DNA of 64,000 nucleotides from Elusimicrobiota bacterium (GTDB taxonomy: Bacteria > Elusimicrobiota > UBA8919). This document shows positions 5,530 to 48,992 of the stretch, one piece after another; positions within the stretch are counted from its first letter, which is position 1, and the number at the start of each line of letters is the position of its first letter. The position numbers and the translations under genes are program-made. Under the pieces are notes generated by a model. The model worked only from the letters and a program-made list of their open reading frames with translations, searched no databases and had not been told where the DNA came from. The stretch is taken from NCBI GenBank assembly GCA_028718185.1, contig JAQUMH010000008.1, forward strand, positions 1-64,000. Reading direction: 5' to 3'.

Positions 5530-6035
5530 AATCCCTGTGATTTAAAAATTATCTCAACTACCTCTCTAAAAACACCTTTCCCGCTTTCTACATTAGTTAT
5601 GTAATCAACTGATTTTTTTATTTCATCGGAAGCATTTTTAGGACAGATTGAAAACCCGCATCTTAAAAGGACCGGCAAATCCACCAAATCATCACCAATA
5701 AAAGCAATCTCGCTGATTAATAAATTTTCTTTTTTCAAAATTTCATTAATCGCAGACATTTTATCCATCTTTTTCTGATATAAATAGTGAACACCTACTT
5801 CTCTTGCTCTATCCTCTACTTGTTGTGATTTTCTGCCGGTAATCCATGCTATTTTTAAATCTTTTGCATAATTTTTTATAAGACTAAACGCAAACCTGTC
5901 ATATACATCCCAGAATTTTACTTCTTCCCCGCTGTTTAAAACTATAATTCTGCCATCAGTTAAAACACCATCAACATCGGTCGCGAGTAGTTTAATCTTG
6001 CTTGCCTTTTTTAAAATATTTTTCCAATTTTCCAT
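5496..6035 (-). CDS. kdsC: KDO-8-phosphate phosphatase
   Basis: This HAD-superfamily phosphatase of the YrbI/KdsC type removes phosphate from KDO-8-P to give KDO for the LPS inner core. The catalytic DVDGVLTDG motif has nucleophile Asp20 and acid/base Asp22; the GDD motif of loop 4 (IGDDLVDLPV) is intact. The 179-aa length matches the cap-less tetrameric subfamily. It starts the kdsC-lptC-lptA-lptB run. kdsA lies about 2 kb upstream on the same strand. Confidence 0.95.
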   Translation of the reverse strand: MENWKNILKKASKIKLLATDVDGVLTDGRIIVLNSGEEVKFWDVYDRFAFSLIKNYAKDLKIAWITGRKSQQVEDRAREVGVHYLYQKKMDKMSAINEILKKENLLISEIAFIGDDLVDLPVLLRCGFSICPKNASDEIKKSVDYITNVESGKGVFREVVEIIFKSQGLWEKVLKHYRA

Positions 6036-7999: not shown

Positions 8000-8809
8000 T
8001 TAATTCTGCCTTAAAAACACTTCTTTTAAAAATTTTTCCATTTCTGAGAGTTTTAAAGAATTAGCGCCGTCTGAAAGTGCTTTTTGAGGATTTGGATGAA
8101 CTTCCAAAAAAAGTCCGTTTATCCCAACTGCAATTGCCGCTTTAGAAAGCGGTAGAACAAATTCTCTCTGGCCGCCGCTTTTATCGCCAAGCCCGCCCGG
8201 TAGTTGAACTGAGTGAGTGGCGTCAAAAATTACAGGATAGCCGGAATTTTTCATTATAACCAGAGAACGAAAATCAACTACAAGATTATTATACCCAAAA
8301 CTTGTTCCCCTTTCTGTTAATAATATTTTTTTATTACCTGCTGATTCAATCTTTTCTATAACATTCTTCATATCGTGAGGTGAAAGGAACTGGCCTTTTT
8401 TTACATTTACCGGCTTTTTTGTTTTTGCAACAGCAAGCAATAAATCAGTCTGTCGACACAAAAATGCAGGTATTTGAATTATATCTGCAATCTTTGAAAC
8501 ATTTAAAACATCTTTTGTGCAGTGAACATCTACCAGAATTGGTATATTGTATTTAGATTTAACCTTTGCTAATATTTCCAGTCCTTTTTTAATTCCGGTA
8601 CCCCTGAATGATTTTATGGATGACCTGTTCGCTTTATCATATGACGCTTTGAATATAAAAGGGATTTTCAACTGTTGGGTGAGTTTCTGAAGTTCTCCTG
8701 CAATTTGAAAAACAATTTTTTCTGCTTCAATAACACAAGGACCCGCAATTAAAACAACCGGATTATCTTTGCCGATTAATATATTACCAACTTTGATTTC
8801 TTTATTCAT
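8000..8809 (-). CDS. kdsA: 3-deoxy-8-phosphooctulonate (KDO-8-P) synthase
   Basis: Condenses phosphoenolpyruvate and arabinose-5-phosphate to KDO-8-phosphate, the first committed step of KDO synthesis. The 269-aa TIM barrel has IAGPCVIE near the N-terminus, FKASYDKANRSS, CRQTDLLLA and the C-terminal GLFLEVHPNP and DGANSL motifs. Cys23 in GPCVIE is normal for the family and does not alone decide metal dependence. Together with kdsB, kdsC and rfaE1 it shows a KDO/heptose-type LPS core pathway. Confidence 0.96.
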   Translation of the reverse strand: MNKEIKVGNILIGKDNPVVLIAGPCVIEAEKIVFQIAGELQKLTQQLKIPFIFKASYDKANRSSIKSFRGTGIKKGLEILAKVKSKYNIPILVDVHCTKDVLNVSKIADIIQIPAFLCRQTDLLLAVAKTKKPVNVKKGQFLSPHDMKNVIEKIESAGNKKILLTERGTSFGYNNLVVDFRSLVIMKNSGYPVIFDATHSVQLPGGLGDKSGGQREFVLPLSKAAIAVGINGLFLEVHPNPQKALSDGANSLKLSEMEKFLKEVFLRQN

Positions 8810-44122: not shown

Positions 44123-44180
44123 TGTAGTTTCGAACCCTTGGACTGCCCGCATATGGCACGCCAAGGGCGTGCAACTACAT
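44123..44180. repeat. GTAG-framed hairpin repeat R7
   Basis: GTAGTTTCGAACCCTTGGAC, then GGCACGCCAAGGGCGTGC and AACTAC, with the same stem word as at 141, 8859 and 39235. Confidence 0.72.
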
Positions 44181-44229
44181 TTCCATATATGAACAAATCA
44201 TAACACAATTTCAAAGAGCTGGATTGAAA

Positions 44230-44245
44230 TGTTTCACGTGAAACA
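44230..44245. promoter_or_regulatory. parS site 1
   Basis: TGTTTCACGTGAAACA, a perfect 16-bp palindrome identical to the consensus chromosomal parS. It touches the ATG of rimO (44246), so ParB bound here would cover the start codon region. Confidence 0.95.
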
Positions 44246-45532
44246 ATGAGAAAAGTTAATATAATTTCTTTTGGTTGCCCCAAGAATCTTGTCGATTCTG
44301 AAACAATTGCAGGAATCTTGGCAAAAAATGGTTGCGCCTTTCTGGCTAATTATAATTTAGCTGATATCATTATAATAAACACCTGCGCTTTTATTGAATC
44401 GGCAAGAGAAGAAGCATATTCTACGATTTCGGAAATTTCTAAACAAAAGTCCCCGCACCAAAAACTTGTAGTTTGTGGATGTTTACCCCAGCTTGAAAAA
44501 GATGCATTGCTAAAAAAATTCCCTAAAATAGATATGCTTCTTGGTAGTTCAGATTTTTCAAATATTCTTAATGCACTTAATTCGTTTGATTTACCTTCCT
44601 CCTCTTTTGTAAAAATAGGGACACCAAAATTCGTTATATCCAATGAACCAAAAATATTTTCAACTCCTAAAAGTTACGCCTATATAAAAATTGCCGAAGG
44701 CTGTAATAACAGGTGTAATTACTGTATTATTCCGGCGCTTCGCGGGAACTATAGAAGCCGGAAAATAGAAGATATTCTTAAAGATGCAGAAAATGCTGCC
44801 GTCACAGGAAGAAAAGAAGTAATTCTAATCGCACAAGATATAACTATGTATGGTTCCGATATCTACAAAAAGCGATGTCTCCACACTCTATTGAAAAAGA
44901 TGGTGAAAATCAGCGGTTTGCAATGGATTCGACTGCTTTACACTCATCCTGCACATTTCACAGATGAGTTAATCTCAACAATTGCCGGAAACGAAAAAAT
45001 CTGCAAATATATTGACATCCCAATCCAACATACAGATGATTCTATATTAAAACAGATGGGAAGGTCCTCTTCCGGTACAATTTTCAATACAATTGAAAAA
45101 TTAAGGAAAAAGATACCAAATATAGTATTGAGAACAACAATAATGGTTGGTTTTCCCGGAGAAACAGAAAAAATATTTACTAAACTATTAAATGATATTA
45201 AATCTCTTGAATTTGACTGGCTTGGAGGATTTGCCTATTCACCTCAAAAAGGAACCGTAGCTTTTGATTTAAAAAATACTATACCGCAAAAAATAAAAGA
45301 AGCACGGCTTAATAAATTGATGGAAGTCCAGCAAAAAATTACTTATATAAAAAACAAAGCCCGTATTGGAAAACCATTTAATGTCCTTGTTGATTCTGAC
45401 AAATGCGGTCATGCCGAATTTCAGGCTCCTGAAATAGATGGCAATATAATATTTAAAAAAAGACAGATAATTGGTGGTTTTTTAAAAGTAAAAATTAAAA
45501 ATGTAAAAAATGTTTATGATTTAACCTGTTGA
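44246..45532 (+). CDS. rimO: Ribosomal protein S12 methylthiotransferase
   Basis: This 428-aa radical-SAM methylthiotransferase has an N-terminal MTTase domain (NIISFGCPKNLVDSE, three Cys at about 10, 46 and 79), a radical SAM domain with CxxxCxxC (EGCNNRCNYCIIPALRGNYR) and a C-terminal TRAM domain. RimO adds a methylthio group to an Asp of S12. The parS palindrome abuts the start. No strong ribosome binding site is visible, so the start is assigned by family. Confidence 0.93.
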   Translation: MRKVNIISFGCPKNLVDSETIAGILAKNGCAFLANYNLADIIIINTCAFIESAREEAYSTISEISKQKSPHQKLVVCGCLPQLEKDALLKKFPKIDMLLGSSDFSNILNALNSFDLPSSSFVKIGTPKFVISNEPKIFSTPKSYAYIKIAEGCNNRCNYCIIPALRGNYRSRKIEDILKDAENAAVTGRKEVILIAQDITMYGSDIYKKRCLHTLLKKMVKISGLQWIRLLYTHPAHFTDELISTIAGNEKICKYIDIPIQHTDDSILKQMGRSSSGTIFNTIEKLRKKIPNIVLRTTIMVGFPGETEKIFTKLLNDIKSLEFDWLGGFAYSPQKGTVAFDLKNTIPQKIKEARLNKLMEVQQKITYIKNKARIGKPFNVLVDSDKCGHAEFQAPEIDGNIIFKKRQIIGGFLKVKIKNVKNVYDLTC

Positions 45533-45563
45533 GATTGTTGTTCAAAAAATACCCAACAATCTC
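45531..45563 (+). terminator. Hairpin at the end of rimO
   Basis: GAGATTGTTG (45531-45540) pairs with CAACAATCTC (45554-45563), overlapping the rimO stop by 2 nt. No T-run follows; a repeat function is equally possible. Confidence 0.45.
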
Positions 45564-45564
45564 T

Positions 45565-45660
45565 GATTACACCTACTCGCCTCGCTTTCGCGAGAGCGAA
45601 GCAGGTTACAAATAAGATTACACAGACCTACCTGCTGGTAGGCAGATTAAAATCTAATGA
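45565..45660. repeat. Hairpin-rich spacer between rimO and parS site 2
   Basis: It contains TCGCTTTCGCGAGAGCGA, a GC-rich palindrome, AGATTACACAGA (shared with 26147) and CTACCTGCTGGTAGGCAG. No reading frame is evident. Confidence 0.5.
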
Positions 45661-45666
45661 TACAAA

Positions 45667-45682
45667 TGTTTCACGTGAAACA
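45667..45682. promoter_or_regulatory. parS site 2
   Basis: A second identical TGTTTCACGTGAAACA, 1.4 kb from the first and 10 bp upstream of a good -35 box. Confidence 0.95.
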
Positions 45683-45692
45683 TTTTTTTCGC

Positions 45693-45721
45693 TTGACATA
45701 TCATTTCTCTTTTTATACAAT
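45693..45721 (+). promoter_or_regulatory. Promoter for the URO-D-like/dCMP deaminase/parAB run
   Basis: TTGACA (45693-45698), 17 bp, TACAAT (45716-45721). parS site 2 is 10 bp upstream. The downstream genes overlap one another (8 bp each), so one transcript could reach parA. Confidence 0.7.
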
Positions 45722-45756: not shown

Positions 45757-46746
45757 ATGCAATCATCTAAAGAATTAGTAAGTAATGCCATTCATTTCCG
45801 TAACCCGGAACGTTTACCGGTAGAGTTTAGCGCTATGGGTATAAGCGATACTGCAGTCGTAAACTGGAACCAGACAGGAGCCGGCAATCGTGACATAAAC
45901 ACAACATTTGATGAATGGAATTGCGAGTGGAGCAGGACTGAAGTTAAAAACATGGGGCTGGTTACCGGTCATCCGCTTTTAAGCTGGGATAAGTTGTCAA
46001 CTTTCAAATGGCCGGACCCGGATAACAATCTATTCTACGAAGGAATGGAAAATAAATTCAAAGATACCGACGGTAAATATGTAAAAACTGAAATTTTTAT
46101 GCTCTTGTTTGAACGCATACATTCATTACGTGGATTTGAAAACACTCTTACCGACCTTTACCTTGAAAAGGAAAAAATAAGTCATCTTGCAGATAGAATT
46201 GTGGAATTTGACATAAGAATAATAGAAAATATATCTAAAAGGTTCCCAAATAAAATAAATGGTCTTTTTTTTACCGATGATTGGGGTACCGAACTGAATT
46301 CTTTTATAAGCGTTGAATTATGGGATGAATTTTTCAAGCCGCGATACAAAAAGATTTTTTCTGCGGCTAAAGCGGCGGGTTGGGATGTCTGGATGCATTC
46401 TTGCGGCAAAATAAATAATCTTATACCTTCTCTAATTGAAATCGGATGTAACGTATTAAATATGCAGCAGCCGCTCACAAACGGAATAAACGAAATCGGT
46501 AAAAAATTTGCCGGTAAAATTTGTTTCTCATCCCTTTGTGATATACAACACACTCTGCCGTTTAAATCAAATGAAGAAATTGAAGCAGAAGCTAAAGAAC
46601 TACTTACCAAATGGGGTACAAAAAATGGCGGGTTCATTTTATCCGATTATGGGGATGACAGGGCAATCGGTGTAAACGGTACGAACAAAAAGCAAATAAT
46701 GTATAACGCCTTTATGAAGTATGACAGGTGGAAAACAAATGTCTAA
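45757..46746 (+). CDS. Uroporphyrinogen-decarboxylase-like methyltransferase-type protein
   Basis: This 329-aa URO-D-superfamily protein has FNPERLPVEF-like entry (RNPERLPVEFSAMG), FTDDWGTE, WMHSCGKINNLIPSLIEIGC and FKSNEEIEAEAKELLTKWG. True HemE arginines and aspartates are not evident; the pattern fits the methyltransferase/unknown branch (MtaA/CmuA-like) common in anaerobes. ATG 45757 is preferred over a TTG at 45742. It overlaps the next gene by 8 bp. Confidence 0.8.
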   Translation: MQSSKELVSNAIHFRNPERLPVEFSAMGISDTAVVNWNQTGAGNRDINTTFDEWNCEWSRTEVKNMGLVTGHPLLSWDKLSTFKWPDPDNNLFYEGMENKFKDTDGKYVKTEIFMLLFERIHSLRGFENTLTDLYLEKEKISHLADRIVEFDIRIIENISKRFPNKINGLFFTDDWGTELNSFISVELWDEFFKPRYKKIFSAAKAAGWDVWMHSCGKINNLIPSLIEIGCNVLNMQQPLTNGINEIGKKFAGKICFSSLCDIQHTLPFKSNEEIEAEAKELLTKWGTKNGGFILSDYGDDRAIGVNGTNKKQIMYNAFMKYDRWKTNV

Positions 46747-47254
46747 AAAAACACTTAAAAGAACTGATTATATATCCTGGGATGAATATTTTATGGGTGT
46801 ATCTTTGCTTTCTGCTAATAGAAGCAAAGACCCAAACACACAAGTCGGGGCATGTATAGTAAACTCCCAGAAAAAAATTGTCGGCGTAGGATATAACGGG
46901 TTCCCGGCCGGATGTTCCGACGATAAGTTTCCCTGGAACAACGGCGGAAAATTTTTAGATACAAAGTATCCGTATATATGTCATGCGGAACTCAATGCAA
47001 TCCTTAACAGTACAGGTAGAAATCTTTTAGGATGCATTCTTTATACCGCGTTATTTCCTTGTAACGAATGCGCAAAAGCTATAATACAATCAGGAATCAA
47101 AGAAGTGGTATATTTATCAGACAAGTATTCACATACTGATGTAGTCAAAGCTTCTAAATTGATGTTCAAATCATCCGGCGTAATCATCAGAAAACTAAAA
47201 ACCGTAAGAAAATCTGTTACAGTGTCATTTTTACCATCAAAATATTATGAGTAA
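46739..47254 (+). CDS. dCMP deaminase
   Basis: This 171-aa zinc deaminase has the CDA motif CHAELNAI (near residue 80) and PCNECAKAI. It converts dCMP to dUMP for thymidylate supply. The N-terminal RTDYISWDEYFMG matches deoxycytidylate deaminases. It overlaps the upstream and downstream genes by 8 bp each; GGTGG provides the ribosome binding site inside the upstream gene. It directly precedes parA, an unusual partner. Confidence 0.93.
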   Translation: MSKKTLKRTDYISWDEYFMGVSLLSANRSKDPNTQVGACIVNSQKKIVGVGYNGFPAGCSDDKFPWNNGGKFLDTKYPYICHAELNAILNSTGRNLLGCILYTALFPCNECAKAIIQSGIKEVVYLSDKYSHTDVVKASKLMFKSSGVIIRKLKTVRKSVTVSFLPSKYYE

Positions 47255-48026
47255 AGTAATTGCTATTGCTAATCAAAAAGGTGGAGTAGGAAAAACTACT
47301 ACTGCGATAAATCTATCTGCATCTCTTGCCTCACTTAACTATGAAACTCTTCTTATTGATTTGGATCCGCAAGCAAATGCAACAAGCGGGTTTGGTATTA
47401 AAAAAGATGAAGTCACCTCCAGCATATATAATGTACTAATTGACGATAGCTTATTAGAAGACACCATTTTACCGACTGATGTCGAATGGTGCGAGATTGT
47501 ACCTTCAGGATTAGACCTGGTTGGTGCAGAAGTGGAATTAGTAAATATGTTGTCCCGTGAAACCCGTCTGAAAAACGCTTTATCTAAGTTTCAGAGTGTT
47601 TATGACTATATAATTATTGACTGCCCGCCATCGTTGGGATTATTAACTGTTAATGCGTTCTGTGTCGCAAATTCCGTAATTATACCGATTCAATGTGAAT
47701 ATTATGCTTTGGAAGGACTTGGTCAGCTGCTTAAACTCGTCGAAGCAATTAAAAAAACATTGAACCACCAACTTTATGTTGAAGGTGTTTTATTAACTAT
47801 GTATGATGCACGGTTAAATCTTTCGGGCCAGGTAATAGAAGAAATCAAAAAATATTTTGGTGATAAAGTTTATAAAACAATCATTCCCAGAAATGTTCGC
47901 TTAGCAGAAGCACCGGGATTCGGGAAGCCTGTTATACTTTATGACAAACATTCACGGGGAACAGAAGCGTACTTAAATCTTGCCAAGGAAATGATTGATA
48001 AAGAATCTGAAAAAGAAAAAAAATGA
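47247..48026 (+). CDS. parA: Chromosome-partitioning ATPase ParA (Soj)
   Basis: This 259-aa Walker-type ATPase has the deviant Walker A KGGVGKTTTAINL near residue 11, VDLDPQANAT-like IDLDPQANATSG and IIDCPPSLGLLT. With ParB and parS it separates origins. It starts inside the dCMP deaminase stop region. Confidence 0.97.
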   Translation: MSKVIAIANQKGGVGKTTTAINLSASLASLNYETLLIDLDPQANATSGFGIKKDEVTSSIYNVLIDDSLLEDTILPTDVEWCEIVPSGLDLVGAEVELVNMLSRETRLKNALSKFQSVYDYIIIDCPPSLGLLTVNAFCVANSVIIPIQCEYYALEGLGQLLKLVEAIKKTLNHQLYVEGVLLTMYDARLNLSGQVIEEIKKYFGDKVYKTIIPRNVRLAEAPGFGKPVILYDKHSRGTEAYLNLAKEMIDKESEKEKK

Positions 48027-48098: not shown

Positions 48099-48125
48099 CT
48101 TCGTGTTATACAATGGGGGAACTTT

Positions 48126-48992
48126 ATGAGGAAAGCATTAGGGAAAGGGTTGGAAGCATTGATACCGGAAATCGGCAATGCTCTTTCTTCTTCCACATCA
48201 GCAGAAGGTGAAGGTACTCTAAAAATACCTGTAAACAAAATTAAACCTAACAGATACCAGGCAAGAGAAAAGTTTGATGAGGCAGGTCTTAAAAATTTGG
48301 CAGATTCTATTATGGAACATGGTCTTGCCCAGCCGATAATTGTTTCAGCAAAACGAAAAGACGGGACATACGAGCTGGTTGCAGGTGAAAGGCGGTGGAG
48401 AGCTTCTATGCTTGCCGGACTTTCTGAAATTCCGGCTATAATAAAAACTCTTTCTGAAAAAGAAAGCTTTGTCCTTTCATTAATTGAGAACCTTCAACGA
48501 AAAGATTTGAACCCCGTAGAAGAAGCAAAAGGTTATAAAAGATTGATGGCTGAATTTAACCTGACTCAAGAGGATTTAGCGAAAACTCTCGGCAAATCCC
48601 GTTCTACGGTTGCAAATATAATACGGCTTCTTTCGCTACCAAAACAGATTCAGGACGCTATTTCTGAAGGTAAAATTACAGAAGGTCATGCAAGAGCAAT
48701 CGCGTCAATTGACGACCCGTTAAAACAACGGTTATTATTAGAGAAAATTATAGCCCAGCAATTAACTGTTAGGGATGTTGAAAAAATTTCGCAAAAATCA
48801 AAAAAAAGTACTTTGAAAAAAGATGCAAACATAACAACAGTTGAGGAAGACTTACAGAAGATTCTCGGAACAAAAGTTGAGATAAAATACAGGGGTAAAA
48901 AAGGTAAAATTATAATCTCCTGTTACTCTTTGGAAGATTTAAATCGTATAGTTAACATTTTACACCAAAAATCTAAGCTTGTAAAAAAATAA
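48126..48992 (+). CDS. parB: Chromosome-partitioning protein ParB (Spo0J)
   Basis: This 288-aa ParB has the N-terminal KALGKGLEALI motif, the CTP-binding/parS-nuclease-like domain (LVAGERRWRASMLAG; NLQRKDLNPVEEA) and an HTH (LTQEDLAKTLGKSRSTVANI). The C-terminal dimerisation domain ends DLNRIVNILHQK. ATG 48126 has GGGGGAA upstream; 48075 would add a hydrophobic stretch unlike the family. The two parS sites above are its expected targets. Confidence 0.96.
   Translation: MRKALGKGLEALIPEIGNALSSSTSAEGEGTLKIPVNKIKPNRYQAREKFDEAGLKNLADSIMEHGLAQPIIVSAKRKDGTYELVAGERRWRASMLAGLSEIPAIIKTLSEKESFVLSLIENLQRKDLNPVEEAKGYKRLMAEFNLTQEDLAKTLGKSRSTVANIIRLLSLPKQIQDAISEGKITEGHARAIASIDDPLKQRLLLEKIIAQQLTVRDVEKISQKSKKSTLKKDANITTVEEDLQKILGTKVEIKYRGKKGKIIISCYSLEDLNRIVNILHQKSKLVKK

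What the first reader, a model, noticed from the sequence alone, without database searches (positions are those of the whole stretch)
44230..45682. Two perfect parS sites, one touching the rimO start codon and one beside a promoter
TGTTTCACGTGAAACA occurs at 44230-44245 and 45667-45682, within 4 kb of parAB and 5-6 kb of dnaA. The first abuts rimO's ATG; the second lies 10 bp upstream of the -35 of the transcript that leads to parA. ParB occupancy could therefore affect rimO and parAB expression. Both are identical to the parS consensus known from Bacillus and many other phyla.
Basis: partly seen in the sequence, partly recalled or inferred. Interest (0 to 1): 0.5.

Follow-up and report, generated by a model that had tools for sequence, protein, structure and literature searches.

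The report
parS centromere sites beside rimO, parA
Two textbook bacterial chromosome-segregation sites sit next to a ribosome-modification gene and next to the promoter feeding the segregation genes, an arrangement kept by several related species; the sites themselves are ordinary, but in other branches of the same phylum the site sequence has changed, apparently together with the protein that reads it.

Summary
TGTTTCACGTGAAACA lies at 44230-44245 and 45667-45682; the 3.03 Mb genome has no other match with 0 or 1 mismatch (0.001 perfect sites expected). The genome is an Elusimicrobiota one. The cognate ParB has parS-type DNA-reading residues. These are ordinary chromosomal parS sites.

Placement is less ordinary. 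rimO lies in the parS/parAB neighbourhood in 9 of 9 order members checked. parS abuts rimO's ATG in 3 of 9; in two more a repeat split the junction. The abutment looks inherited but dispensable. parS2 is better supported: parS, 8-16 bp, TTGACA-16/17-TATAAT, then the parA transcript, in 6 of 9. I favour mild ParB feedback on parAB; ParB dependence is untested. Precedents exist (P. aeruginosa parS3/parS4; M. bovis gidB-parAB).

Following parS across the phylum gave a larger lead. 115 of 340 Elusimicrobiota genomes carry GTTTTCACGTGAAAAC, 81 of 340 TGTTTCAYRTGAAACA, one both, 145 neither. The change tracks ParB's recognition helix: a probable centromere-specificity switch with hybrid intermediates.

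The parts
44230..44245 (.). parS1, perfect 16-bp palindrome TGTTTCACGTGAAACA, directly before rimO's start codon
   Evidence: same junction in G003 and G004
44246..45532 (+). rimO (ribosomal protein S12 methylthiotransferase); no Shine-Dalgarno match, parS1 fills positions -16 to -1
45627..45646 (+). degenerate copy of a 20-nt palindromic dispersed repeat, 20 bp before parS2
   Evidence: 3 mismatches; family counted
45667..45682 (.). parS2, perfect 16-bp palindrome
45683..45692 (+). T-rich spacer between parS2 and the -35 box
   Evidence: T-rich in relatives too
45693..45721 (+). sigma-70-type promoter TTGACA-17-TACAAT (11 of 12 consensus letters) of the transcript that leads to parA
   Evidence: conserved in relatives
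45757..46746 (+). URO-D / MtaA-CmuA-like gene, first gene of that transcript here; no match in the fetched loci of the other 8 order members
46739..47254 (+). dCMP/cytidine-deaminase-like gene, overlapping its neighbours
47247..48026 (+). parA (begins at the Walker-type ATPase domain, no N-terminal extension)
48126..48992 (+). parB; GERR motif and parS-type recognition residues R173, N178, G201, R204 (Caulobacter numbering). My queries began two codons upstream, at 48120

Best explanation
The two sites are the only canonical parS sites found in the genome. ParB loads on them as a CTP clamp and slides out over rimO, the parA promoter and the parAB genes to build the partition complex near the origin. 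Sequence, neighbourhood and the matching ParB are shown here; loading and sliding are inferred from the established ParB family. parS2 sits 10 bp upstream of the -35 of the parA transcript, and a similar spacing is kept in most order members, so ParB most likely exerts mild negative feedback on parA-parB (inferred). parS1's contact with the rimO start codon is an inherited position, tolerated rather than needed; any effect on rimO is probably a small roadblock effect.
For: Only two sites with 0-1 mismatch genome-wide, both by parAB. ParB domains HTH_ParB, ParB_N and ParB_C above their cut-offs, with Q162, G170, K171, S172, R173, N178, G201, R204 of the parS-binding type (positions from passages of PMC7383237). 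74 of 77 parS sites (0-1 mismatch) in 37 loci lie outside ORFs, while 83% of sampled positions lie inside ORFs. parS-spacer-TTGACA-TATAAT in 6 of 9 genomes; their best promoter scores are 11-12 of 12, shuffle P 0-0.007 in 1000 approximate dinucleotide shuffles. Outside the order, parS (0-2 mismatches) lies within 400 nt upstream of parA in 17 of 21 loci with a parA match. ParA has no N-terminal DNA-binding domain, so ParA-type autorepression is unlikely (review PMC7022226, passages). ParB at parS3/parS4 represses adjacent promoters in P. aeruginosa (PMC5521831, abstract and one section).
Against: No expression or binding data exist here. In G001 the promoter is kept while its parS has decayed (4 mismatches); G005 has a parS after rimO but no promoter beside it (best 5 of 12, P 0.999); G002's stretch reads N and was not scored. 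The same strong promoter within 16 bp of parS was not found in the other families' parA upstream stretches. In B. subtilis, V. cholerae and S. pneumoniae few genes change without ParB (review passages). The abutment to rimO is not intact in 6 of 9. NCBIfam's best-scoring model for ParB is nucleoid_noc, below its cut-off (246 of 315 bits); parB_part is above its own.
Confidence: 0.6

Rival explanations
1. Pure centromere: the sites only nucleate ParB. They lie by start codons and promoters because parS is confined to short intergenic gaps, with no regulatory effect.
For: parS is almost never inside ORFs in this phylum (74 of 77 outside), so closeness to promoters and starts is expected. The abutment to rimO is absent or split in 6 of 9. 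G001 keeps the promoter without an intact site.
Against: The parS-to--35 distance stays within 8-16 bp in 6 of 9 genomes, including one of another family (G008), while the first gene of the transcript changes.
Confidence: 0.3
2. parS1 works in the rimO mRNA leader: its hairpin or A-rich end before the AUG sets translation, so one element is both centromere and translation signal.
For: No Shine-Dalgarno match at rimO; the leader can fold a hairpin of -4.7 to -7.0 kcal/mol directly before AUG in G000, G003, G004. Three genera share the junction. Of 12 named stretches with parS directly before ATGARRAAA, 5 start an ORF of 200 aa or more, among them rimO, rsmG, an mnmG-like and an RluA-family gene.
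Against: 38 of 57 window genes have a Shine-Dalgarno match at one of their first three starts, so lacking one is not rare. The hairpin is weak. Six of nine order members do without the intact junction. In G004 the rimO frame stays open upstream to a possible start at 5570, so the ATG choice there rests on the alignment.
Confidence: 0.05
3. parS2 palindrome plus T-tract also ends the rimO transcript as a weak intrinsic terminator, insulating the parA promoter.
For: Hairpin of -8.4 (G000) and -6.8 (G004) kcal/mol followed by 6-7 T.
Against: Only three of the six (G000, G004, G008) have the T-run directly after parS; the stem has few G-C pairs and the terminator scan did not list it. G008's hairpin is -2.9.
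Confidence: 0.05

Closest known systems
Chromosomal ParABS centromere parS (B. subtilis-type consensus TGTTNCACGTGAAACA)
   Same: Matching sequence, origin-proximal, beside parAB, cognate ParB with parS-type residues
   Different: Only two sites, both intergenic and both on the rimO-parA interval
P. aeruginosa parS3/parS4 at PA0011 and PA0013 (PMC5521831)
   Same: Intergenic parS beside a promoter; there ParB represses it through parS
   Different: Here the promoter leads to parA itself, and repression is untested
M. bovis BCG gidB-parA-parB promoter overlapped by parS (PMC2346475)
   Same: parS at a promoter of the operon that contains parAB; regulation proposed there
   Different: There parS overlaps the -10; here it lies 10 bp upstream of the -35
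ParB/Noc specificity switch parS-NBS (PMC7383237), for the phylum-wide lead only
   Same: Change of half-site base 1 together with the recognition helix around residue 173
   Different: The Elusimicrobiota variant has GT instead of TG, K or R at 173 with S177, and keeps G201 in nearly all (57 of 57; A in G217 and G252)

Membership tests
Chromosomal parS (ParABS) | 16-bp palindrome matching the consensus | tested here: met
   consensus from passages of PMC2346475 and PMC4409726
Chromosomal parS (ParABS) | near parAB and the origin | tested here: met
   (cumulative skew lowest at 42-45 kb within the window; dnaA at 50 kb)
Chromosomal parS (ParABS) | cognate ParB with parS-type HTH residues and CTP motif | tested here: met
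Chromosomal parS (ParABS) | ParB binds the site in vivo | not testable with these tools
   needs ChIP or in vitro loading
ParB-regulated promoter with parS | parS next to a promoter, conserved in relatives | tested here: met
   6 of 9 order members; not seen outside the order
ParB-regulated promoter with parS | transcription changes with ParB or parS loss | not testable with these tools
   needs reporter or RNA data
Noc/NBS system | Q173, K179/K184, R201 and an NBS half-site | tested here: not met
   window ParB has R173, I179, S184, G201; the sites are parS

The most novel reading that the evidence does not exclude
Within Elusimicrobiota a large ParB clade (families f4, f6, f21-f24) has switched its centromere sequence: the outer half-site dinucleotide TG became GT (GTTTTCACGTGAAAAC). 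The change goes with recognition-helix residue S177 and, mostly, K173. Loci with R173 plus S177 carry either hybrid or mixed sites (11 of 23) or variant ones (12 of 23) and look like living intermediates. Three lineages placed inside the clade, with R173 plus A177, carry canonical-type parS. This would be a natural third DNA specificity of the ParB/Noc family, with its steps preserved.
Probability: 0.7. Interest if true: 0.6.

Novelty: new member of a known kind. Interest (0 to 1): 0.42.

Why it matters
For the window: an uncultured lineage adds a conserved parS-promoter arrangement to the few examples where the centromere may tune its own segregation genes. For the phylum: how a chromosome changes its centromere sequence without losing segregation is an open question, and a clade with old, hybrid and new sites paired with matching ParB residues makes it testable with purified proteins and 16-bp duplexes.

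Tried and rejected
Leaderless rimO start: parS1 offers no -10 element at the required place by inspection; not pursued. Intrinsic terminator at parS2: weak. Tree of the order for dating the rimO abutment: poorly resolved, the splits between genera have support 38-79, so one origin is likely but not shown. DnaA-box scan: no cluster at either parS. Paper searches: rimO with parS and ParB, 27 papers hold the terms, 10 listed, none on this subject by title; parS with start codon or ribosome binding site, 589 hold three of the terms, 12 listed, none on this by title. A one-residue code (R173K alone) for the variant parS was rejected: 23 loci with variant or mixed sites in the derived clade have R173. 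The sign test on independent pairs for K173 versus variant sites is not significant (median p 0.25, 5 pairs).

G005 has a copy of the 20-nt palindrome 25, 25 and 28 bp from its three parS sites; possibly only because both crowd into intergenic gaps, not resolved.

Full report
Observation. Matches with up to 3 mismatches number 5 in the window against a shuffle mean of 0.35, and 0 of 100 shuffles reached 5. In the whole 3.03 Mb genome (27 contigs, 96.7% complete) there are two perfect sites, none with one mismatch and five with two; composition predicts 0.001, 0.06 and 1.3, so the two-mismatch sites need little explanation beyond chance. The first site directly precedes rimO's ATG; the second ends 10 bp before TTGACA.

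Organism. The relative G003 has a parS-bearing contig of 49,298 bases, the same length as DHFT01000045.1, titled 'Elusimicrobia bacterium UBA4817', which the pattern scan returned with the same parS-rimO junction. G003 is of the same family as the window's genome, so the window is from Elusimicrobiota.

Machinery. rimO, parA, parB and dnaA were checked against NCBIfam, and all but dnaA also against Pfam. ParB carries the GERR motif and, by ungapped counting along its recognition helix, Q162, G170, K171, S172, R173, N178, G201 and R204. These are the parS-type residues described in PMC7383237 (passages), not the Noc set Q173/K179/K184/R201. ParB should therefore read the canonical site. NCBIfam's top model by score is nucleoid_noc, but below its cut-off.

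Arrangement in relatives. Of 60 genomes, the own one included, 37 have parS with at most one mismatch; I fetched one locus from each of the other 36. In the family (8 genomes) plus one genome of the same order, rimO lies in the parS-parA neighbourhood in 9 of 9. parS touches rimO's ATG in G000, G003 and G004; in G004 the rimO frame stays open to a possible start at 5570, upstream of parS, so there the ATG rests on similarity to the other RimO starts. In G006 the same parS-ATG junction exists, but 233 nt separate parS from the present rimO start; 226 nt of that stretch have 30 matching places in the genome, most of them partial. In G007 a 20-nt palindromic repeat splits the site in its centre while the right half still touches the ATG. 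In G001, G002, G005 and G008 parS lies further away. The upstream contexts of G000, G003 and G004 look unrelated by eye: G003 has a promoter-like site (10 of 12) ending 44 nt before the ATG, so parS would be in its leader, and in G004 an in-frame stop codon of what I read as an upstream gene ends 7 nt before parS. The junction looks inherited and dispensable.

The promoter. Downstream of rimO, parS (0-2 mismatches) is followed at 8, 9, 10, 15, 16 and 16 bp by TTGACA-16/17-TATAAT-like promoters in G004, G008, G000, G003, G006 and G007. Of 8 genomes scored, G001 keeps the promoter with a decayed site and G005 has no promoter there; G002 was not scored because its stretch reads N. The first gene after the promoter differs between genomes, but parA lies downstream in the same direction in each. 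Outside the order, parS lies within 400 nt upstream of parA in 17 of 21 loci with a parA match, but without this promoter geometry. 74 of 77 sites with at most one mismatch are outside ORFs of 100 aa, against 17% of sampled positions (simple ORF caller; the sites are not independent).

Function. Loading of ParB at such sites is established for the family (general knowledge). Promoter repression by ParB at an adjacent parS was shown in P. aeruginosa (PMC5521831: abstract and the reporter section read), and regulation was proposed for the M. bovis BCG gidB promoter that parS overlaps (PMC2346475: passages). Other species show few changes near parS (PMC7022226: passages). I commit to centromere function (near certain) with mild feedback on parA-parB (about even odds) and little or no specific control of rimO.

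Beyond the window: a changed centromere. In one search, 23 of 60 genomes had no parS with up to one mismatch, all of them in families f4 and f6, yet each has a ParB match (59 of 60 genomes do; the one without is G057 of f3). Several loci around their parAB show GTTTTCACGTGAAAAC (6 of the 10 fetched have no exact copy or a related form only in 5: G033, G013, G041, G027, G056). That exact 16-mer occurs in 15 of the 60 genomes, all in f4 and f6, at 27 places all within 3 kb of parB. In the phylum it occurs in 115 of 340 genomes and TGTTTCAYRTGAAACA in 81 of 340; comparing the two tables by eye, only G317 has both, so 145 have neither exact form. G317 has two ParBs on different contigs, one of each kind, so contamination of that MAG is likely. 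ParB itself was found in 296 of 340.

Covariation. I read all sites with the core TTTCAYRTGAAA in 127 loci and the ParB recognition helix where the locus or a separate short stretch gave it; 101 loci had both a residue 173 and at least one site, 23 had the residue but no such site (14 with K, 9 with R) and 3 had sites but no ParB. With K173, 44 of 56 sites are GT/GT and none is TG/TG. With R173, 83 sites are TG/TG, 37 GT/GT and 22 hybrid GT/TG, plus 24 other mixtures. Residue 173 alone is therefore not the code. In the derived clade all 56 loci with variant or mixed sites have S177 (32 K173, 23 R173, 1 S173), and all 6 with canonical-type sites have R173 and A177. Outside the clade 12 loci have S177 with canonical sites, so S177 depends on context. 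A ParB tree built without the recognition-helix columns (137 rows) puts f4, f6 and f21-f24 together (98% SH-aLRT), with the canonical lineages G157-159, G254-255 and G212 inside (quick tree, root not inferred, G212 is a long branch). The sign test over independent pairs is not significant (5 pairs), so the association rests on few independent changes. The variant string was in 0 held papers. Searches (187 papers, 10 listed; 2 papers; 83 papers, 10 listed) showed none on this variant by title; the nearest is PMC7383237 on parS versus NBS. Most subscription papers are not in that library.

Limits. No binding, expression or TSS data; relatives are mostly unnamed MAGs; promoters are consensus matches.

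Noticed in passing
L118-L127, L148-L227 (relatives); tables: Many genomes of families f4, f6, f23 and some of f24 of Elusimicrobiota carry GTTTTCACGTGAAAAC beside parAB instead of canonical parS; ParB there has S177 and mostly K173, with R173 and hybrid sites in genus g30.
   Followed up: partly
L046 1662-1697 (G007): A 20-nt palindromic dispersed repeat is inserted in the centre of the parS that touches rimO, a naturally split centromere site.
   Followed up: partly
L044 (G005) parS at 8746, 10160, 12140; window 45627-45646: Each of the three G005 parS sites has a copy of the same 20-nt palindrome 25-28 bp away; a degenerate copy lies 20 bp before parS2 in the window.
   Followed up: partly
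L040 9833-9848 (G001): Another parS touches the ATG of a different gene, a 559-aa membrane-like protein, so parS-ATG contact probably arose at least twice in the family.
   Followed up: no
L077, L083, L086: Perfect parS directly before the ATG of rsmG (Alphaproteobacteria), an mnmG-like gene (Bacteroidales, judged by sequence only) and an RluA-family gene (Bacteroidales).
   Followed up: partly
window 44125-44190: An imperfect inverted repeat (TGTAGTT...AACTACA) fills part of the gap before rimO; possibly a dispersed repeat.
   Followed up: no
window 42-51 kb: Cumulative GC skew is lowest at 42-45 kb, at parS1 rather than at dnaA (50.2 kb), with a second shallow dip near 51 kb.
   Followed up: no
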